From assembly GCA_034696485.1 (NCBI GenBank), contig JAQIWT010000306.1, positions 1 through 23,981 on the forward strand: a stretch of DNA of 23,981 nucleotides, in the 5' to 3' direction. Every line of letters begins with the position of its first letter. The first letter of the stretch is position 1. A program made the position numbers and the translations under genes. The stretch is from Isohypsibius dastychi (Eukaryota > Tardigrada > Eutardigrada > Parachela > Isohypsibiidae). Of this stretch, positions 1 through 17,200 are shown one piece after another. The notes under the pieces are model-generated. The model was not told where the DNA came from, made no database searches, and saw nothing but the letters and a program-made list of their open reading frames with translations.

Positions 1-150
1 ATAGTATACTGAGTAAGTAGATTTCTTCTGAGACAGATTTACTGAGTAAAAAGTAATTAAATTTGGTTTCAAGGGCAGAGATAGTACAGTGAAGTAAAGT
101 AGATTTTTTTGGGCCTTTAAAATTCAGTAAATAGTAAGTAGATTTCAAAA
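1..150. repeat. Degenerate short direct repeats, AGTAAGTAGATTT family
   Basis: The 14-mer AGTAAGTAGATTTC occurs at 12-25 and again at 133-146. A one-base variant (AGTAAAGTAGATTT) lies at 93-106. TACTGAGTAA occurs at 7-16 and 40-49. The spacing is irregular, so this is a cluster of subrepeats and not a clean tandem array. It lies about 260 bases upstream of the Harbinger transposase start and could be a subterminal region of that element or an older repeat. I found no matching inverted copy on the right side of the element. Confidence 0.5.
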
Positions 151-406
151 ACCGCTCAGTAAACAACATTATTTCCAACGACTGATTATTAAATGGCACT
201 CTACAATTATAAATCCTCTGAAATAATTATTTGAAATAATTATCTTCTGTGGTTTTGCCCTCCAACCAATTGCAATTGCAGGAACGGTTTATTATCGTTT
301 TGATTTTGAGCGGTTTAATTAACCCACACAAACCGATGGCTGAATTATTTTTCTCTGAGAAAGTTTGAAGTTATCTAGTTGAAGTTATTCCATTATCCAT
401 TGAACT

Positions 407-1006
407 ATGCCGAAAGGAGACAAGCCGAGGCTACTGAAACGCTAAGACAACATAGTTTCAGTAGCAGCATGTGAACAGCTTTGTTGGAACGATTCTAGTT
501 CTAGCAGCGATGGCGAAAGCGATTCGGAATCTGGTTGTTCTGACGGAGATGATCTTTTTCCCCCGATAGTTATCAGGCCGCTCTGGAGGCAAAAAGATAT
601 TTAGGACCAAGGATGTGTGTGCCAGAGACTAATGAATTCGTGGATGAGGTATTATCTAGCTACGACGACGAACGTTTCCGCCAGCAAGTGCGAATGTCTC
701 GAGCTTCCCATCTTCGGGATCTGAATTCTGCTAGAAAACCATCCAGTATTTGCCAGTTCTTCGAAACATCCTCGGGAAGTCGTTACAAAACAGTTTAACA
801 TCGCTGCACACATCCTTGGCCATAATGGGAATGGGGCATTTGTTGCGAATCTCGCTTCAAGATTCGGAATCGGGGAAGGTACCGTCCGTCTGTATACCTC
901 GAGAGTTCTCACAGACCTTCTGGGTTTAAAGTCAGCTCATCTTGATTGGCCAGATGCGAGGGGAAGAAATGTTATTTCGGAAAGAATTCAAAATCAATCG
1001 GGATTT
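407..1006 (+). pseudogene. PIF/Harbinger transposase, 5' part (broken)
   Basis: N-terminal part of a Harbinger transposase, which in intact form cuts and moves the transposon DNA. ATG at 407 opens MPKGDKPRLLKR, then a TAA stop at 443-445. The same frame then gives an acidic Ser/Asp/Glu-rich stretch (SSSSSDGESDSESG, about 490-560). The frame changes near 560 to YQAALEAKRYLGPR and YDDERFRQQVRMSR (571-690). It changes again near 785 to HILGHNGNGAFV, FGIGEGTVRLYTSRVL and LDWPDARGRN, which is the helix-turn-helix region typical of this family. Reading stops exactly at the retrotransposon junction (1006). One nonsense codon and two frame changes precede the insertion point; introns could explain some but no clear splice pairs are seen. 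The continuation is at 4333. Confidence 0.85.
997..1006. repeat. Left target-site duplication of the retrotransposon
   Basis: ATCGGGATTT here is identical to 4333-4342. The left copy follows the transposase codons for NQSGF, and the right copy precedes codons for LFCVGFADGT. Removing 1007-4342 restores one open frame through a conserved Harbinger region. This is strong evidence that the repeat is a genuine insertion duplication and not chance. Confidence 0.9.
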
Positions 1007-1395
1007 CATTCATGACAAAAATTCCAAAATGACATTAAAAATGCTCCTTTCCTTCATGCCAATTTCCGATCTGTCGGTGCCCCCTTTGCTGCCCAATAAA
1101 TGAGGAATGTTTCTGCGGTACTTTTCGATGAATTTGTTGGGAAGGCCAGCTTTGTGGAGGATCAAGCAAGCCAAAATGGAATTCATGGTGAGCTCCATTT
1201 ACCTGTCTCTTCTTTGAGGAATCTCCTGCCTCCTGCCTTCAGGTCCTGACATTGCATCGCGAAGAAATTTGCTGCTATGAATTCTACCCTCGAAGCACCG
1301 ACGACGGGGTAAGCTTAAGCGCCACCACATCTGCTGCTGTTCTTTTGGACATCTTTGTTGTGGTTTTCTGAAATTCATTTTGCCGCTGATCTGAC
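1007..1395 (+). other. Retrotransposon 5' leader
   Basis: The stretch between the left target duplication and the start codon has no long + strand ORF. A TGA at 1387-1389 is in frame just upstream of the ATG, which supports 1396 as the start. R2-type elements often begin with a self-cleaving HDV-like ribozyme; I could not fold this stretch and see no clear signature, so its role as promoter or ribozyme is open. Confidence 0.55.
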
Positions 1396-4245
1396 ATGTC
1401 CATCTCCCCTGATTTTATTTGTGATCGCTGCAATTTTGTGGCCAAGAATCGTGCTGGACTCTCCATTCACCGCGGAAAGGGAAAATGTCTTCGCAGCTCC
1501 CAGTCCCAAAAAGCCTCTCTACTTCCGCCTTCCACTTCGAATTCTGTTTCTGCGTCTTTCCTAGATAAGCTCAAGCGCTATCGAAGAAACACAAAGATAA
1601 TGCCTCGAATTCCCCGCGGTGCCCGGACTTTTGCTGCTGAAGCCTTGACGAAAGCAGTGAAGGAATGCAACTCGAAAAATGACGTAGCTTCATGGGAATA
1701 TTTGTTGCTCTTCCCCTATCTGGCTTTCGGGCTGCCGTTGGAAAAGAATCCCAAGGAATCTCTTACTTCAATTGTCAAAGCAAATCTCTCCAGAACAGAA
1801 ATCGCAACAGCTGCGCCAGCCAAGAAAAGCTCGAAGAAGCTGCCATCGCCAGATGAAACACTGAAGAAAATGGTGGAAAGCAAGCTTCAAGATGGGAACA
1901 TCTCTGGAGCAGTTCGTATCCTGTCCTCAGATGATTCCGTGGCACCTGTTTCCGCGGAAATTTTGGACATTCTTCGCAGCAAACATCCGCAAGCGCCTTT
2001 GAACCTGGTGAATATAGCAAAGCCCGTTGATGCTCCTGTCGCACCGGAAGTAACCTCGGATGAAATCGTCGACGCAATCAAGTCATTTCCGAATGGTTCT
2101 GCTGGTGGGATTGATAGTTTAAGGCCTCAGCACCTGAAAGATCTCATTGGAAGTCTGCGTGATGAAGCCTCTCTCAAACTTTGTGATGCATTGGCTTCGT
2201 TATGTTCTCTTATTTTGAAGGGCAAAATTCCGGAATCGATCTGCTCTACGTTTTTCGGTGCGTCGCTGACAGCCCTTAAGAAGAAAGATGGCGGAATACG
2301 ACCGATTGCAGTTGGTATCACGTTGAGGAGAATTGTTGGCAAGATTGTGAGCAGGCGTGTGATGAATTCAATGGGTTTATTGCTTCGACCGGTTCAACTT
2401 GGATATGGGACGAGAAGCGGTGCGGAAGCTGCAGTCCACGCCACCCGATCATTTGTTACGGAGGAGTCCAAAAGTTGCCGAGTTTTGTTGAAACTGGATT
2501 TCCGGAATGCCTTCAATTCTGTCCGCAGAGATGCTCTTTTGACGGAAGTCGCTGTTCATCTGCCGTGTTACTTTGACTTTATTCACCAGATGTATGGCTC
2601 GACTTCGCACCTCTTTTTCGGAGAATATTTGCTGGCATCGGAATCCGGGGTTCAGCAAGGAGACCCTCTTGGACCGTTGTTATTTTGTTTGATTGTTCAA
2701 CCTTATATTACACGGCTGAAATCCAGACTCAACCTGTGGTACCTTGATGACGGTACTTTGGGAGGCACTGTAGAGGAAGTGCTGGATGATTTGGCAACAG
2801 TACTCGATATGGGTGAGAAAGTTGGACTTCAGCTCAATTTATCAAAGTGTGAAGTCTTTGTTTGGGGAGGAAATGTGGCAGAGCGCAAGTTGGCTTTGGA
2901 TATCATAACAGAAAGGTCACCGGAAATTCGAGTTCTGCGGGAGTGCGAACTCAACCTTCTGGGATCGCCATTGTCAGTTGATGCTGTTCCCGCTGCGTTG
3001 AACGAGAAAACCTCGCAAGCAACCCGTCTGACTTCCCGACTATCTTTACTCGATTCCCACCAAGCTTTGTTTTTGTTGAAAAATTGTTTCAGCATTCCAA
3101 AGCTAATGTATATCTTGAGGACTGCACCGACATGGAATTTCCGGAAGGAACTTACGGATTTCGATGAAGTGATCCGAGAATCACTATCATCGATATCTAA
3201 CATCGCCATTTCGGAGAAAGTTTGGAGTCAAGCATCACTTCCAGTAAGCAAAGGAGGACTTGGTATTCGGCGAGCAGTGGATTTGGCGCTTCCGGCCTTT
3301 TTGGCTTCCGTCCACTGCACCTCAAAGTTGATATCTGAGATCATACCTGGCGCTGACGTGGACGATATATTGTTTGAACCGAATGCTTTGTGGAACCAGT
3401 TGACGGCTACCGTTGAACCGGTAAACAGGAAAAGCCAAAAAGAATGGGACCTGCCAGTTGCGGATATGATTTTCAACACTTTGATGCAATCGTGCGATCA
3501 AGTTGAGTCTGCTAGGTTGTTGGCGGTTTCTACGAAAGAATCTGGGCTGTGGCTAAATGCGCTTCCCGCTCCAAATCTAGGAACGTTGCTTGATAATGAC
3601 ACCTTCCGGATTTCAGTTGCACTTCGATTGGGAGCTCCTATTTGCCATCCACATGTGTGTCTCTGCGGGAAAATGGTCGACGTTGCGGGTACTCATGGTC
3701 TCTCCTGTAAATTCAGCCGGGGAAGACACTCAAGACACAACGCATTGAATGAAGTTGTTCGGCGTGGTCTCGTTTCAGGATCGACTCCGGCAATTCTTGA
3801 ACCACCGGGACTTGAACGTTCGGATTCCAAGAGACCTGATGGTTTGACCTTAGTGCCGTGGAGTCAGGGGAAGCAGCTCATCTGGGACGTGACATGCGTG
3901 GATACTCTTGCCCAAACGTATTTGTCTGGCTCTGCTGCGGAACCTTGCTACGCGGCAGATTTGGCTGAACGAAAGAAAGTTGAGAAGTATCGAAGCTTAG
4001 AAGGACGTTTTGTTTTCTGCCCCCTTGGCTTCGAGACTTTCGGGGCATGGGGATCATCGGCCAAAGAACTTGTATCCAAGATTGGAAAGAGGATGATTGC
4101 TCAGACAGGGGAAAAGCGTTCTTTGGAATATCTCCGCCAGCGGATTAGTATAGAAATTCAACGTGGAAATTCCGCCTGTGTTTCTGGAACGCTTCCTTCT
4201 TCCCGTGGTCTCGAAGAGGCTTTTTATGTTTTAGCCCTGAAGTAG
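1396..4245 (+). CDS. Retrotransposon polyprotein: zinc finger, reverse transcriptase, RLE endonuclease
   Basis: A 949-residue protein expected to nick chromosomal DNA and copy its own RNA into the nick (target-primed reverse transcription). Seen in order: a CX2CX12HX5C zinc finger (Cys9, Cys12, His25, Cys31), probably for nucleic acid binding; a basic linker; reverse transcriptase from about residue 225, with AGGIDSLRPQHL (236 on), motif A KLDFRNAF (Asp368), motif B GVQQGDPLGPLLF (418-430) and motif C YLDD (Asp451, Asp452); a thumb/connection region; a zinc knuckle (Cys755, Cys757, His767, Cys771); then RHNALN and a PD-(D/E)XK nuclease (Pro814-Asp815, Asp831 in WDVT, lysines 860-864). All catalytic residues are present and no stop or frameshift is seen. 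Motif C is YLDD, not the FADD of typical R2. Expression would depend on the element's own leader or on read-through from outside. Confidence 0.93.
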   Translation: MSISPDFICDRCNFVAKNRAGLSIHRGKGKCLRSSQSQKASLLPPSTSNSVSASFLDKLKRYRRNTKIMPRIPRGARTFAAEALTKAVKECNSKNDVASWEYLLLFPYLAFGLPLEKNPKESLTSIVKANLSRTEIATAAPAKKSSKKLPSPDETLKKMVESKLQDGNISGAVRILSSDDSVAPVSAEILDILRSKHPQAPLNLVNIAKPVDAPVAPEVTSDEIVDAIKSFPNGSAGGIDSLRPQHLKDLIGSLRDEASLKLCDALASLCSLILKGKIPESICSTFFGASLTALKKKDGGIRPIAVGITLRRIVGKIVSRRVMNSMGLLLRPVQLGYGTRSGAEAAVHATRSFVTEESKSCRVLLKLDFRNAFNSVRRDALLTEVAVHLPCYFDFIHQMYGSTSHLFFGEYLLASESGVQQGDPLGPLLFCLIVQPYITRLKSRLNLWYLDDGTLGGTVEEVLDDLATVLDMGEKVGLQLNLSKCEVFVWGGNVAERKLALDIITERSPEIRVLRECELNLLGSPLSVDAVPAALNEKTSQATRLTSRLSLLDSHQALFLLKNCFSIPKLMYILRTAPTWNFRKELTDFDEVIRESLSSISNIAISEKVWSQASLPVSKGGLGIRRAVDLALPAFLASVHCTSKLISEIIPGADVDDILFEPNALWNQLTATVEPVNRKSQKEWDLPVADMIFNTLMQSCDQVESARLLAVSTKESGLWLNALPAPNLGTLLDNDTFRISVALRLGAPICHPHVCLCGKMVDVAGTHGLSCKFSRGRHSRHNALNEVVRRGLVSGSTPAILEPPGLERSDSKRPDGLTLVPWSQGKQLIWDVTCVDTLAQTYLSGSAAEPCYAADLAERKKVEKYRSLEGRFVFCPLGFETFGAWGSSAKELVSKIGKRMIAQTGEKRSLEYLRQRISIEIQRGNSACVSGTLPSSRGLEEAFYVLALK

Positions 4246-4332
4246 CTTTTGCTGTCTTTTTGTTGACCTTTTTGTTGGTGATTCAGGTGTGTTCATATTT
4301 ATTATAATTTAATATTAAATTTTTTGGGACTT
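4246..4332 (+). other. Retrotransposon 3' untranslated tail
   Basis: An 87-base T-rich and AT-rich tail between the stop codon and the right target duplication. In RLE elements the 3' UTR RNA is what the reverse transcriptase recognises to start cDNA synthesis. There is no poly(A) run at the junction. The very short tail is notable but complete, because the duplication follows directly. Confidence 0.6.
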
Positions 4333-4342
4333 ATCGGGATTT
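4333..4342. repeat. Right target-site duplication of the retrotransposon
   Basis: Identical to 997-1006 (ATCGGGATTT). The codon phase of TCG GGA TTT is the same at both sites, so the transposase frame continues from it into FCVGFADGTLVPLAQK. Confidence 0.9.
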
Positions 4343-4682
4343 TTATTTTGTGTTGGATTTGCGGATGGTACGCTTGTACCTCTAGCGCAAAAGCTCACTT
4401 TGGATGGTGAGGACTGTTTTATGAGAAAGAAAAAATATGCAATATCAGCGCTTATTGTTTGCCCTCGCTGCAGAAAACAAAGAATTCAACTTCCGGCTAT
4501 CGCGTATGCGAATGAGTTGGCTGATACCAGAAGACGAGAATGAACCGGAAGTAGAGGCCCGAAGCGCAAAGACTATATCGCACACTGACGGAGAAGTTAA
4601 GCGGGATTTTTTGAAACATGTCGTCCTTGATTCTCAAATGTTGTTCTCTCACTTTGGATATTCAGTAAAATCGAAGAAATAA
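4333..4682 (+). pseudogene. PIF/Harbinger transposase, 3' part (internally deleted)
   Basis: Continuation of the transposase cut at 1006. Frame 2 reads CVGFADGTLVPLAQK, LDGEDCFMRKKKYAISALIVC. This is the start of the DDE domain, and the Asp of DGT (4364-4366) is the first catalytic Asp. The frame then passes to the 4437-4682 frame with ENKEFNFRLSRMRM directly followed by SWLIPEDENEPEVE and EVKRDFLKHVVL. In family members these blocks are separated by the second catalytic Asp, the conserved catalytic Glu (usually in a VER/VE-type motif after the RLSRMRM-like helix) and about 150 residues, all missing here. The deletion is older than, or independent of, the retrotransposon insertion. The catalytic triad is incomplete, so the protein is inactive. 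Confidence 0.85.
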
Positions 4683-4704: not shown

Positions 4705-5203
4705 TCATCCATTTTTATTCAATTGCGCTAGCAGGATTTGAAGTAAAAGTCTTTGATTTCCGAGCTCCACCGCTTTGTTCTCGAAATCTTGTAGAGCAAC
4801 TGCAGCTTCTTGGTCAAATTTACGTTGTTGGAACTCGAACTTCATAACATTCAGCTCTTGTTTTTTCTCCGCATTTTTCGAATTTTTTTGAAGCATTTCG
4901 GTCACAATATCGGTCGAGGCCTTCAACTTCTTGGCGGGTTGTTCATCGCTAGCTGGTTCTTTCTTCTCCGCGGACTTTGCGAGACGAGCGGAAATGGTTT
5001 CCACTTCCGGTTCAGGTGATCCACTAATGCAACTTGAAGAAACAAGATACCGTAACAAGCAAATCGATTTTCTGATAATTTTTCTCTTACAATCTTCTTG
5101 GAGCACCGGGTCAACCAAGTTCCTCAACTGTTTCGTCTTCATCCTGCATTTCGTTTTCATAGCGCTTGTCAAAGTCAGAATCCACACTTCCGGTTTGGCT
5201 CAT
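4705..5203 (-). pseudogene. Harbinger accessory coiled-coil (Myb-like partner) protein, probably frameshifted
   Basis: ATG at 5203-5201 opens MSQTGSVDSDFDKRYENE, an acidic start that runs to a TGA about 30 codons on. An overlapping frame (open from 5187) takes over near 5115 and runs to 4705 with PEPEVETISARLAKSAEKK, a Lys-rich PAKKLKAS patch resembling a nuclear localisation signal, and a C-terminal helix (EKKQELNVMKFEFQQRKFDQ then LQDFENKAVELGNQRLLLQI) of coiled-coil type. In PIF/Harbinger elements the second gene encodes a Myb/SANT protein with such a tail, which helps the transposase enter the nucleus and bind the ends. The SANT helices themselves are not visible, so they are deleted or lie in a lost exon. 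A single extra base near 5115 would explain the frame change; a short intron is the alternative. Confidence 0.65.
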
Positions 5204-8200
5204 GGTGGCTTCGAGAATAGGGGAATCTAGCTGCCGTATTATTCTCCAACTTGTGGAAGTCGGTTAATTTGTTCGCACCATAAAAGAGCTGATAGATTGT
5301 CAATTTCATGTTTGTGAGAATCTGACTGGAACGCCATGAAATTACCCGAGTGACGCGTCTTTGAATTCAACTGAATTCATTCGAAATACACTGCTGTTTT
5401 TTACAACCGGGAGTGAGTCAGGTTGTTCATCTGAACTCGAATCAACACTCAAACAACCGGAAATGGATTTTTTATTTTATTTCATTTGTCAAAATGCGTG
5501 ATGCGTATATGGGTGTGCCCATTGGTCAGTCGCAGGCCGCCTTCCGCACATAGCCGCATAAGCTGAGGCGAGGTTTCCATTGCTATTCAGGCACCCCCCT
5601 GAATTTGAGCTTCAGCCAGATAACTTGGAAGAGCTCACATCAAATCAAAAGAGAAATCAGGTTTATTAGTGAATACAAGACACCACTTTCATAAAACTAT
5701 TGGCTGAGTGTTTCGAAAAATGAGAGCGAGTCGAAAAACGCCGAGTCAAATACCGAATATTCTGCATGTCTTAAGAACCGATAATTTTTAAATGGAAGCT
5801 CTGCAAATTAGTATTTTTTATAATTGTGTTCCATGTTTGCCCGGGCTATATCTAAATGCAGTTATCAGTTATAGATGAAAACAGAGTCTGAATGGTTTTC
5901 GAGTCACAAACCAATACTGTGGATCGGTCCGTGTAGGGCGTTGGGTTGGATCATGGTTCAGGTCAATGAGACACATTCCGCGCGAAAACGGCAAGCAATT
6001 CATACAGGCATGACAGAATAATCGATAACGTTCCTTTTGAAACTGAATTAATGCTGGAAGCTTAAAAAACATTGAGCTGACTTGTTGTGAACATTTGATT
6101 TTAGAGAATCAAATACCTATAAATCTGTTCTGGGGTTCGGCACGCTGCTTTCATAAAAACCAGTTAAAAATAACATGGGTCGGTGAGTGCCAAAGAATAC
6201 GAAGAAAAACATCAAGGAAAGTCCACACAGCCGATCGAAGAGAAGTAGTGGGCAGCTAATGATAGATTTATTGCAGCCAGGTACACAGCATATTCAGGTT
6301 TTCTTTTTTCACCATATTTTACCGTTCCATGTGCCGTTGCTTCCGCCAAAAATTGAAAAGATGTACTGAAGATATCGTTGGAGACAACCAACTGGAATTG
6401 TTCGGCTAGACTCTGTCAAGTGAACGATGATCAGTCTTTGTGGCCGTGAGGCAGCGTCCGGGTATCGTTCACAATTGTGAGCCTGAACTTTTTTGTTATT
6501 GCGAAGGCTAAAATTTTAGGATTCTGTTCGTTTTGAGCAACTTTAGAATAGTATTCGACAGGAATCAAATGACGATTCTTCAGTGAAATCGATGCGGAAA
6601 AGTTTCTTCCAAAGATTGATGGCTGAAAGCCTCTTCGTATTACGGCGCGATTTCAGTACCGGATAACAAGTGAGACGTGATTACAATATTCAGGTAGCAC
6701 CATAATGGTGGCGTCCGGAATGATCTGGCCGAAGGGAATATATCTTTACGGCAAAGATATACCGAGCCCATAAACATACGAATGCACTAGTCGAGAGTCG
6801 ATAAATTGAATGTTGTTCATTACCAGCCGGTTATTTCCAAAAACCATGCAAGCACAAGCTTGTCTTATATGCAAGAAAACCAAGGTTGTTTGAAGTGTAC
6901 TCGAGCGTTAGGCTCAATAGGAACAGCTTGGTCAGCTAGGGGTAAAAAATTGTAAGCAAACATAAGTGCGCTCGGGACAATGTCCGTTAGCGCATGGCTC
7001 AGCATAAATCAGTTCGTTTATGTTTAGATGCTTTCACGCAGCATTTGCTTCTCGAGGATGCTACGACTTTTGTTATTTGTTCGCCGTTGCTGAGGACATA
7101 CGAACAACTGTTTCGTCCAAGATGAAAGAAGATCTGAATGTATTTGCAAGTTTTCAGAATTTTTCATGAGTTTCGATTTTGGCGGAATTCATTTTTGATT
7201 TTTGCTCGATCAGTTCTCTCACTTTTCAAACGGACAATTTTTCAATGGAATAAAACATCAGTTCAGTATAACATACTTCATAGAAACTGCTGAGCATCGT
7301 CGCGGCTTTTGTTCGTTATTCTTGAATGAAGATCATCCTTTTCTTTTCAATCAGCCGATGAGCCCGAAGCTTCAGACTTGATTTCCAGAAAAAGATCAAT
7401 GTGATCTTTAAAAGGATATTTCGCCCGATGTTCATAATGCCAACCAGAACACGTTTCCAAAACTCAATATCCATGCGTCAGTGCTTCTTGAATTTCATAT
7501 GAACACCATATTCTCATCAGAGCTCGATCGTCATTGCTGTCGCGACACAGTTGATTGAGCTGTTGCCCCGCAACTGTTTGGCAAAGCGGGAAGAGGAGTT
7601 TCTCGTAGCGGTACGGTTATACATGAAGAGAGAAATCGTTGGGTTAGAGTAACGTACATTAGATCCGGCTAGATATCTGCTCGGTTGAGAACAAATCTCA
7701 AAACGTCTGGTCTTCAGCATTTTCTTGACTAGTATTCCAACATCCAAAATGTTCCCAAATCACCATTGCTCTGACTTGGGATTCCCGATTCGGAATTATC
7801 ATTCGATTGTTCCTTCTTCAAAAATCTCATCGGAAAGGTGTTGGAGCTTCTGCTCTCTACCGAGAGCAAATCCGTGCAATGACTTCGTCAAAAGCGGATT
7901 TCTTGGAAATGAAAGGATCTTCACCACCAAGGTCCAGTTGATTGTGTATTTTCTGGCTTATTTTGTTGTCCCCATGGACGGATCTCCGCTGAAATTCGGT
8001 CACGGGTGCAAAATTGAGCTAAGCTCTCGATCCGAGAATTCACTGACTTGCCGGGCTGAGACTGGATTGACGAAAGATTAACCACTATCAAAGAACCGAC
8101 CCAGATCCACAGAATTATTTGAATCGAAAAGAATCGCACGAAAACTCTCACAAATTTGTTTCGACTTTCTCAGTGATGATTCAGCTTCCAAATTTCCAAA

Positions 8201-10354: not shown

Positions 10355-10770
10355 AAAATCTGTGAAACTTGTCAGCATGATGCTGGGACCGCTCCACGCG
10401 ACACATCACTCATTTGCCACACAGTTGCCGAGCGACTGCTGTCGTCTGACACGTTTCGATGAAAGCCGTGCACGATAATAAACATGTTGTCAACAGCAAT
10501 GGCCAGCACAAGAAACGTGATCACTTCGATAATTATTGAAGTCGCAGGTAGACGAAAGTAGCTGTAGAATCCGACTGATGCGACGGAAGACGCAAACACG
10601 ATGGTCACTCCAACCATAATCAGGGTGATTTTCGACCCAATGAGGCTGCTCTTCAGATCAGTGTACCGTCCGAGCGAGAGGGCAATGGAGACGAACATGA
10701 CGATATAACTGAGCGAAACAGTTTTTACATCTGCTTGACTGGATCGCGTTATCTCGTCCTGAATTAAGCG
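10355..10770 (-). pseudogene. NPC1: NPC1 exon: sterol-sensing domain, one frameshift
   Basis: The clearest NPC1 piece. It begins at acceptor TTGCAG with RLIQDEITRSSQADVKTVSL, continues SYIVMFVSIALSLGRYTDLK, GVTIVFASSVASVGFYSYF, and IEVITFLVLAIAVDNMFIIV. The family has SYAIMFLYISLALGH, GILIVLSSVACSLGVFSY and [20 protein letters not shown]. The sterol-sensing domain senses or carries membrane sterol. Near the end the frame runs RGAVP into a stop, while the next frame gives SIMLTSFTDF, matching APSMFLSSFSE. One base is therefore lost within CCC at 10387-10385. The exon would end at a GTATGC donor (10354). Confidence 0.9.
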
Positions 10771-10824
10771 CTGCAACAGAGGGTGTCAGTTCGAATCGAG
10801 TCGGGTGACAGTGACTCCACTTAC
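10771..10824 (-). other. 54-nt intron in NPC1
   Basis: GTAAGT donor at 10824 and CTGTTGCAG acceptor ending at 10771, both near consensus. Splicing joins SPTISYMQG to RLIQDEI in phase 0, matching the order LTISFTAERSIEDELNRES in human NPC1. Confidence 0.9.
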
Positions 10825-15634: not shown

Positions 15635-16091
15635 TAAAGTGCGAACAAGACAAAAAAGCTACGAAGCCTATTCGGAGATCCATCAAGCCCATCAGCCGGA
15701 AACACTCGCACCAAACGCACAAAAAACAATAATGATGTTTTTAAAAGGTTGAATGACAGTATGATCAAGTTGACCGAATCAGATCTGCTGGACCGGAAGT
15801 TGGAACGTGAGCAGCGGGAGAAAGACCGCATTTCGCTGGAATCGATTGAGCTGAGGAAACTTAAACAGCAGCGACTCAAGCGGGAAATTTAACGAAAGGA
15901 TCAACAGGATCAAGAAAAAAGAAAGCGCAAAGATCGAATGGATGAACATGAACGAGATCGCGAATTTCGACGAGAAGAAGAGGACGTGAACGAGAGTTTT
16001 ATAAATTGATCCTTAGTTAAAAGGAGTAACGCTTTCACGTAATAACCCGGATAATTCGTAAGAGAACACAAGAGCTTGATTGAACTGACTA

Positions 16092-16103
16092 CGGGATATC
16101 CCG
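16092..16103. repeat. Palindrome CGGGATATCCCG, copy 2
   Basis: A perfect 12-nt palindrome at the 3' end of the transposase pseudogene, preceded by TGAACTGACTA. The same TGAACTGACT precedes the related palindrome at 18146. Confidence 0.7.
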
Positions 16104-17200
16104 GTTTCCGGCATTTTTCAGATAAAACTCCAGAGTTAATGGATCGAGTTGAGAATATTTTAACCAATTTAACACCGTACATGCACGTGTGACGGTTAGC
16201 TAAGATAGCTGAAACAATGTAGATTTCTGCCGGTTGCTGCCAAAAAACTTTCTGGTTTTCTTTGTAATTCCCGAAAGCAAAGTACTGTGCTATCTTTCCG
16301 AACCCATATTCCACAGCAATCCTTGCACCAGTCATGTCCAGGTTCATTTGACGCTGCACAGGAGTGATTTCGCCTTTTAAGGACGTTTGGATCTCATCGG
16401 TCAACGCATAACCTTTATCCCCTTAAATACAATACTCGGGACGTCACTCTTGGTTTTTCGCTCGCAGCCTTGCAAGGAAGTTGCTCTTTAGCACCATATA
16501 ACAGTCATAATGTCTTCCTTCCGCCGGGCCCGACAAATTGGCAATGAGTCCATTAGGAATGAAAATGCTCTAGAATTTAATCACATGTTGCCAGCAATGC
16601 CCGCAATAGAAAGCTCGTTGATCATAGCTTGGTCGACAAACCGCCAGGGCTGTCCCGTCCGTAAATCCCCAGCAATCATCCGCGGAAACATAGATTCAGG
16701 TGGATTACTCCATGAAAACAGGTGGAGGAGCCTGGACACGTACCGTATCTCCCTGTCGCGTGATGGACAGCATCCGCAAATTGAACAATATACTCTCTGG
16801 ATAACCAGGGCTGGTTCAGCGACTCAAGCAAATGGCCATGCAAGTCTTAAATCAGATTGATCGTGTGGCTGGAAATCCACGTCAGCTGAGATTGCTCACG
16901 ACCCAATAAATCGAAAACGTTGTAAGTTAAAAACGTCCATAGAAAACCTGGCGTAATGTCGTTCGAGATAACGTTTGATATTCCAAGCTTTGAGTAGCAT
17001 GAGTTCAGCAAAGCATGCTCTTCTCATGCGTCGTCGTCGTTCAAAACGCGCAAGTATCCGATGGTTAAATTTTTGCAAATCATATAAGGAGTAGGCGAGT
17101 TTATTCCTCAGCACGGGATATCCCGAAAAAAAACTTCGAGGATCCAGATGAACATCCAAATTCAGAACGCAGGAATTAACGAGGAATCTCGGTTGACTGA
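16100..17200 (-). pseudogene. HARBI1-like PIF/Harbinger transposase, decayed
   Basis: Read from the right: RRRRMRRACFAELMLLKAWN and YARFSMDVFNLQRFRF (N-terminal region), HGHLLESLNQPWLSREYI and FADAVHHATG, then WGFTDGTALAVCRPSYDQRA, FYCGHCWQHVIKF, PNGLIANLSGPAEGRHYDCY, GDKGYAL and RIAVEYGFGKIAQYF. These are the ordered motifs of a DDE Harbinger nuclease: Asp of DGT (16659-16657), Asp of GDKGY (16419-16417) and Glu of VEYGFG (16311-16309) are all kept. In the same frame there are three stops, TAG 16572-16570, TGA 16446-16444 and TAA 16425-16423, plus frame changes upstream near 16680-16810. The type differs from the first element (shape of the FIDGT and VE blocks), so this is a separate family. 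It is convergent with the coiled-coil gene on its left. Confidence 0.82.
17114..17125. repeat. Palindrome CGGGATATCCCG, copy 3
   Basis: A perfect 12-nt palindrome within the N-terminal part of the transposase pseudogene. Its context TCAGCACGGG...AAA resembles copy 1 (TCAGCCCGGG...AAA). Confidence 0.7.

What the first reader, a model, noticed from the sequence alone, without database searches (positions are those of the whole stretch)
997..4342. Young RLE retrotransposon caught inside a Harbinger transposase gene, with both junctions visible
Seen directly: ATCGGGATTT duplicated at both edges, an intact 949-codon ORF between them, and a transposase frame that rejoins exactly (SGF-LFCVGFADGT) when the insert and one duplicate are removed. 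Known: many RLE elements are site-specific for rRNA, spliced-leader, snRNA or other repeats. Inference: this family either targets a Harbinger sequence or inserts freely, and it is recent because nothing in it is broken while the host transposase is.
Basis: partly seen in the sequence, partly recalled or inferred. Interest (0 to 1): 0.75.

Follow-up and report, generated by a model that had tools for sequence, protein, structure and literature searches.

The report
Jumping gene inserted inside another transposon
In a water bear's genome, an intact copy-and-paste jumping gene of the R2-like type sits inside a decayed cut-and-paste transposon; its relatives there landed at many unrelated places, so it looks like a non-targeted member of a group best known for aiming at fixed sites, which is tidy but not extraordinary.

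Summary
ATCGGGATTT lies at 997-1006 and 4333-4342; between them is a 3,326-bp element with one intact ORF (ATG 1396, TAG 4245, 949 aa). A related transposase gene on contig C1605 of the same genome aligns to the two host flanks joined with one repeat copy, without a gap at the junction, so the insertion and its 10-bp duplication are real. The protein is an R2-type LINE protein: zinc finger, reverse transcriptase, zinc knuckle, restriction-like endonuclease with its catalytic residues. The host is probably a hypsibioid tardigrade (BiP 92% identical to Hypsibius exemplaris). Insertion is not site-specific, at most weakly biased. 'Recent' fits the intact ORF, but the closest other copy found is 84% identical over 148 columns, so no recent burst of this line was seen in this possibly partial assembly. 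New member of a known kind; its named clade (HERO?) could not be tested.

The parts
997..1006 (+). left copy of the 10-bp target-site duplication ATCGGGATTT
   Evidence: exact match to 4333-4342; single copy in the empty-site paralogue alignment
1007..4332 (+). RLE non-LTR retrotransposon, full insert, 3,326 bp
   Evidence: bounded by the duplication; gapless empty-site paralogue
1007..1395 (+). 5' untranslated region; positions 32-191 of the element align at 75-81% to the 5' region of the C786 copy
1354..1368 (+). conserved 15-nt motif TTTGTTGTGGTTTTC upstream of the ORF
   Evidence: exact in 3 and with 1-2 mismatches in 3 more of 8 copies with an N-terminus
1396..4245 (+). single ORF, 949 aa
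1420..1488 (+). N-terminal C-x2-C...H...C zinc finger (residues 10-32 of the 950-aa reading that starts at 1393)
   Evidence: sequence; sub-threshold Pfam zf_C2H2_ZHX at residues 6-26
2278..2862 (+). reverse transcriptase domain, YLDD active site
   Evidence: Pfam RVT_1 E 2.4e-21, residues 296-490
3658..3708 (+). CCHC zinc knuckle, spacing C-x1-C-x9-H-x3-C
   Evidence: residues 756-772, the four residues invariant in a 38-sequence alignment
3724..4107 (+). restriction-like endonuclease: RPD, WDVT, KVEKY and GAW motifs
4246..4332 (+). 87-nt 3' untranslated region, no poly(A)
4333..4342 (+). right copy of the target-site duplication
593..1006 (+). 5' part of decayed Harbinger-type transposase gene (start of DNA homology to C1605; the gene probably begins upstream)
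4333..4680 (+). 3' part of the same transposase gene, with internal loss of at least about 65 codons; end approximate
4705..5199 (-). second, convergent ORF of the host transposon (164 aa), related to the convergent ORF in C1605
   Evidence: DNA match 4709-4843 to C1605; no Pfam family above cut-off

Best explanation
Window 1007-4332 is a full-length, apparently intact LINE of the restriction-like-endonuclease (RLE) type in a hypsibioid tardigrade. It inserted by target-primed reverse transcription into a Harbinger-type transposase gene that is itself decayed: the endonuclease nicked one strand before ATCGGGATTT and the other strand 10 bp away, the RT copied the element RNA from the nick, and repair made the 10-bp duplication. 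The family needs no particular target: other copies sit at unrelated places with 10-13-bp duplications, and many are cut short at their 5' end. Shown: boundaries, duplication, ORF, domains and catalytic residues, dispersed targets. Inferred: the nicking order and TPRT, and that the element is recent and competent.
For: Empty-site paralogue without a gap at the junction. ORF intact, RT domain. A family profile matches R2 proteins across RT, knuckle and endonuclease (E 4.9e-27 to zebra finch R2, profile 216-901); model pLDDT 90.8; the seven best Foldseek hits are R2 chains. Catalytic RPD, D, KxxKY and GxW present as described for LINE RLEs. Duplications of 10 bp or more in 8 of 16 5'-truncated copies against 5 of 240 mismatched 5'/3' pairs (Fisher p 3.5e-8, rough because the pairs reuse the same 16 windows), and in 2 of 8 longer copies. 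Flanks of 11 copies share nothing at E 0.01 and their loci hold no Rfam match. No change at 128 near-invariant residues. BiP 92% identical to Hypsibius exemplaris.
Confidence: 0.92

Rival explanations
1. The family is targeted to Harbinger transposase genes, and the window shows its home site.
For: The window copy does lie in such a transposase. Transposons are listed among the targets of some site-specific LINEs (PMC4640811 introduction).
Against: Ten duplications are all different; flanks do not resemble each other, and the C1605 transposase matches only the window's flanks among 11 copies; the C1605 transposon copy is empty at this site.
Confidence: 0.03
2. The family has a loose sequence preference at the nick (AT-rich, pyrimidine at -2, A then T at +1/+2) without being site-specific.
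For: Information over 30 bp around the nick of 10 sites is 11.57 against 7.39 (sd 1.08) for random positions in the same flanks, 0 of 5000 as high; upstream half alone 9 of 5000 (first seen, 1 of 3000).
Against: Few sites, mixed sub-lineages, noticed after the sites were listed; A-rich element ends blur the boundary; downstream half alone 110 of 5000; with 11 sites 3 of 5000; in a 6-site subset 104 of 5000 (that subset was meant to hold only elements not ending in A, but L016 does end in A).
Confidence: 0.4
3. The insertion is old and the ORF has been kept intact by selection or chance rather than by youth.
For: No other copy above 84% identity was found, and that one only over a short 3' piece; the window's line stands alone in the tree on a branch of 0.58 changes per site, which is the median there.
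Against: Duplication identical at 10 of 10 positions, ORF open over 949 codons and 0 of 128 near-invariant residues changed, while the surrounding transposase is decayed.
Confidence: 0.12

Closest known systems
R2 retrotransposon (Bombyx, zebra finch, turtle; PDB 8gh6, 9nl3, 9nl2)
   Same: One ORF; N-terminal zinc finger, RT, CCHC knuckle, RLE with PD, D, KxxKY and GxW; profile match from RT to RLE; best Foldseek hits.
   Different: Not in 28S rDNA and not site-specific; one N-terminal zinc finger seen; knuckle spacing C-x1-C-x9-H-x3-C instead of CX2-3CX7-8HX4C.
BLAG, non-site-specific R2-like elements of the German cockroach, with a relative in the tardigrade Ramazzottius (PMC7650587)
   Same: R2-like architecture, 3.2-3.7 kb, dispersed insertion, relative in a tardigrade (sections 3.3-3.5 read).
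   Different: The two BLAG-defining motifs are not found in the first 300 residues of the window protein: local scores 22 and 23, reached by 350 and 411 of 500 shuffles.
HERO clade of RLE LINEs
   Same: PMC4640811 says HERO holds many non-specific families (introduction read), the behaviour seen here.
   Different: No HERO sequence was available, so kinship was not tested; HERO is reported from sea urchin, lancelet and fish (passage of PMC9004415).
Unnamed relatives in Hypsibius exemplaris (P0041), Paramacrobiotus (P0083), Lepidoptera, springtail and psyllid
   Same: 40-54% identical to the window protein among the 120 best listed of 1,507 hits; 38-sequence alignment with mean column identity 46%.
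   Different: Some relatives carry further Pfam domains, PF02257, PF00628, PF02338 or PF00443 (recalled as RFX, PHD, OTU and ubiquitin hydrolase); none of these was found in the window protein.

Membership tests
RLE-type non-LTR retrotransposon | reverse transcriptase of the non-LTR kind | tested here: met
   RVT_1 E 2.4e-21; R2 and LINE-1 RT matches
RLE-type non-LTR retrotransposon | C-terminal restriction-like endonuclease with PD, D, KxxKY, GxW and RH | tested here: met
   P815 D816, D832, K862 K865 Y866, G884 W886, R781 H782 against the description in PMC5678591 (passage); profile aligns into R2's endonuclease
RLE-type non-LTR retrotransposon | CCHC knuckle between RT and endonuclease, CX2-3CX7-8HX4C | tested here: inconclusive
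   C756, C758, H768, C772 are invariant in 38 sequences but the spacing is C-x1-C-x9-H-x3-C
RLE-type non-LTR retrotransposon | no LTRs, 5'-truncated copies, target-site duplications | tested here: met
   8 of 16 truncated copies with duplications of 10 bp or more; no direct repeat of 20 bp or more within the element among those listed for the window
R2 | insertion at the fixed site in 28S rDNA | tested here: not met
   transposase target here; no Rfam match in 11 loci
BLAG | bipartite BLAG motif between zinc finger and RT | tested here: not met
   scores no better than shuffles
HERO | placement with HERO in RT phylogeny | not tested
   no HERO sequence was reachable with these tools
NeSL / Utopia | insertion in U2 snRNA or spliced-leader genes | tested here: inconclusive
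   no Rfam match in 11 loci, but a tardigrade spliced leader need not be in Rfam and some Utopia families are only weakly specific
NeSL / Utopia | placement in RT phylogeny | not tested
   no reference sequences reachable
R4 / Dong and CRE | placement in RT phylogeny | not tested
   no reference sequences reachable
Harbinger/PIF (host gene) | DDE_Tnp_4 transposase | tested here: met
   the empty paralogue C1605 matches PF13359, E 4.6e-21; the window halves align to it. The link of PF13359 to Harbinger is recalled
Harbinger/PIF (host gene) | terminal inverted repeats and short target duplication | tested here: inconclusive
   only a 12/14 inverted match at 368-384 and 5610-5626

The most novel reading that the evidence does not exclude
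A broad, well-conserved animal lineage of RLE LINEs, kept as several parallel lines in one tardigrade genome, that has given up a fixed target for a loose short preference at the nick and carries a conserved 15-nt promoter-like motif before its ORF, outside the five named RLE clades.
Probability: 0.12. Interest if true: 0.5.

Novelty: new member of a known kind. Interest (0 to 1): 0.33.

Why it matters
Most RLE LINEs are described as site-specific (abstract of PMC4640811). A family with clean junctions, an exact empty site, an intact ORF and ten dispersed duplications is a usable natural contrast for asking which part of R2-type proteins sets target choice, a question of interest because R2 proteins are being developed for gene insertion (abstract starts of PMC12222951 and PMC12180492 in the listing). 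On its own it is one more non-specific RLE family, in a phylum where my five searches showed little on such elements.

Tried and rejected
Harbinger targeting: rejected on flanks. Known RNA-gene targets: no Rfam match at gathering scores in the window or in 11 loci; in the 5' region three sub-threshold hits, none of them a ribozyme family; no tRNA in the window. BLAG membership: rejected. C1124, a 970-aa frame that first looked like a second RLE family, reads as an APE-type LINE protein (recalled resemblance of its N-terminus, not searched). Terminal repeats for the host transposon: only a 12/14 match. Mitochondrial COX1 for naming the host: no match in the assembly. Fold comparison does not separate R2 from LINE-1. 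Duplications in further copies: 15 copies tried with one mismatch allowed (L007 and L058 among them, which were not in the 24); 9-bp candidates only in L012 and, ambiguously, L013; control 3 of 90 pairs. The C110 copy (L022, L027, L066), which nearly reaches the C-terminus, was not tested for a duplication. More loci could not be cut out. Flanks printed for minus-strand loci were in the wrong orientation and were redone. Note 1 gives the motif place one base too low; it is 1354-1368.
Full report
What was claimed and what is there. The repeat ATCGGGATTT is at 997-1006 and 4333-4342. The stretch between them holds one open frame, ATG 1396 to TAG 4243-4245, 949 aa. A 10-bp repeat in an area of this size is not decisive: another repeat of 11 bp is found in the same search. 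The decisive test is an empty site. The own genome (30.4 Mb in 1,648 contigs) was searched with the left and right flanks. Contig C1605 carries a related transposase gene without insert; the two window flanks joined with one repeat copy align to it over 537 columns at 66% identity with 7 gap columns, none at the junction, and the reading frame runs through it. The 3' part of the C1605 protein matches DDE_Tnp_4 above cut-off (E 4.6e-21); the part that spans the junction matches it only below cut-off (E 0.0033). The window's transposase pieces match C1605 at 53-60% on the left and 74% next to the junction on the right, with a frame change near 717-719; further right, residues 317-385 of the query (which include four spacer X) have no counterpart and the last 109 are covered by 56 codons. 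So the host gene is broken in its own right. C1605 has a stop further downstream as well.

Host. BiP from the same assembly is 92% identical to Hypsibius exemplaris and 88% to Ramazzottius in the best local alignment (57% and 61% of the query covered, probably because one exon was left out). Among the 120 listed relatives of the retrotransposon protein, the named one with the highest identity is from Hypsibius (53% over 71% of the query). I take the host to be a hypsibioid tardigrade. The contig lengths I saw are all above 10 kb, so short repeat-rich contigs may be missing from this assembly.

The family in this genome. A protein search gives 49 matching stretches, a lower bound (48 of 56 candidates scored); one of them, C1124, is a different LINE. 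Only C306 (window), C786 and C738 are open over nearly the whole length; many copies keep only the 3' end. In a tree of 33 proteins the genome's five long copies fall into four separate lines, with C1498 and C272 together at 100/100; the window's line stands alone on a branch of 0.58, the median for end branches, and most forks between these lines have modest support. The closest DNA to the window element is 84% over 148 columns (C769) and 81% over 226 (C21). Elsewhere in the family C1498 and C793 are 90% identical over 2,032 columns and 98% over 207 residues, so other lines have left closer pairs than the window's line.

Targets. I tested 24 copies that reach the C-terminus. Ten have a perfect repeat of 10-13 bp at the expected places: 8 of 16 truncated copies and 2 of 8 longer ones. 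Repeats of 10 or more occur in 5 of 240 mismatched pairs made from the 16 truncated copies, repeats of 11 or more in 0 of 240 against 4 of 16 (Fisher p 3.5e-8 and 1.0e-5, rough because the pairs reuse the same windows). The ten targets are ATCGGGATTT, AATTTAAGCTC, AATGATTAGGT, TTCTGAGTCGATT, ATTCTACAAC, TTCTATGGGG, ATACATAATA, ATCTTTTTAGT, ATTCCCTTGG and GTATTTGTCTT. With an eleventh, 9-bp candidate (L012), flanks of up to 400 bp (about 110 on the left for L010 and L016) have no match to each other at E 0.01, and the transposase matches only the window's flanks. No Rfam family is found in the 11 loci. Insertion is therefore not site-specific. Base composition at the nick is nevertheless less random than in nearby DNA (0 of 5000 controls reach it with 10 sites, 3 of 5000 with 11). 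This was noticed after the sites were listed, mixes sub-lineages, and is blurred by A-rich element ends, so I treat it as a lead.

Age. In favour of a recent insertion: perfect duplication, open ORF, and no change at 128 positions that are at least 97% conserved in the other 37 proteins (eight other proteins also score 0, 27 score 1 to 5, two score 7 and 10). This shows an element that has not decayed, not a date. No close sister copy was found.

Comparison with known kinds. PMC4640811 (abstract, introduction and the phylogeny section read, passages elsewhere) says that four of five RLE clades are mostly target-specific and that HERO has many non-specific families. PMC7650587 (abstract and sections 3.3-3.5 read) describes the non-site-specific BLAG elements, which group with one from a tardigrade; the window protein lacks their motifs. 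I could not reach HERO, NeSL, R4 or CRE sequences, so the clade is open. My paper searches on this point were made, in an open-licence library only.

Verdict.

Noticed in passing
window 1354-1368 and upstream of the ORF in L010, L011, L012, L013, L068: A 15-nt motif TTTGTTGTGGTTTTC is kept upstream of the ORF (exact in 3, 1-2 mismatches in 3 more of 8 copies; no clear match in L015 and L067) although the proteins are only about 50% identical and most of the 5' region does not align; promoter or initiation element is a guess.
   Followed up: partly
L010 (C786), element positions 29-162 and 443-501: Part of the 5' region that is single in the window element occurs twice in the C786 copy, like tandem 5' units.
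   Followed up: no
L013, L020, L026, L057, L059 just after the stop codon: One sub-lineage has a small hairpin right after the stop (such as GCTGGTGAATGCACCAGC) with changes that seem to keep pairing, perhaps a 3' recognition structure; seen by eye, not tested.
   Followed up: no
G000:C466:9642-10275 (L040, L050, L054): A short internally deleted relative of the same Harbinger-type transposon, 85% identical to part of the window's right flank, lacking the stretch with the insertion site.
   Followed up: partly
window 15910-16422, minus strand: A second DDE_Tnp_4-like transposase fragment (E 0.00086, below Pfam's cut-off).
   Followed up: no
window 10372-10785, minus strand: Exon-like frame with a sterol-sensing / Patched domain (E 1.9e-15), a probable host gene.
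   Followed up: no
window 1-171: Repeat with several copies at 78-92% identity in the genome, upstream of the Harbinger-type transposon.
   Followed up: no
proteins P0016, P0023, P0026, P0033, P0034, P0042, P0059: Relatives of this retrotransposon from other sources carry PF02257, PF00628, PF02338 or PF00443 in the same protein (Pfam column; recalled as RFX, PHD, OTU and ubiquitin hydrolase), suggesting repeated gain of extra modules.
   Followed up: no
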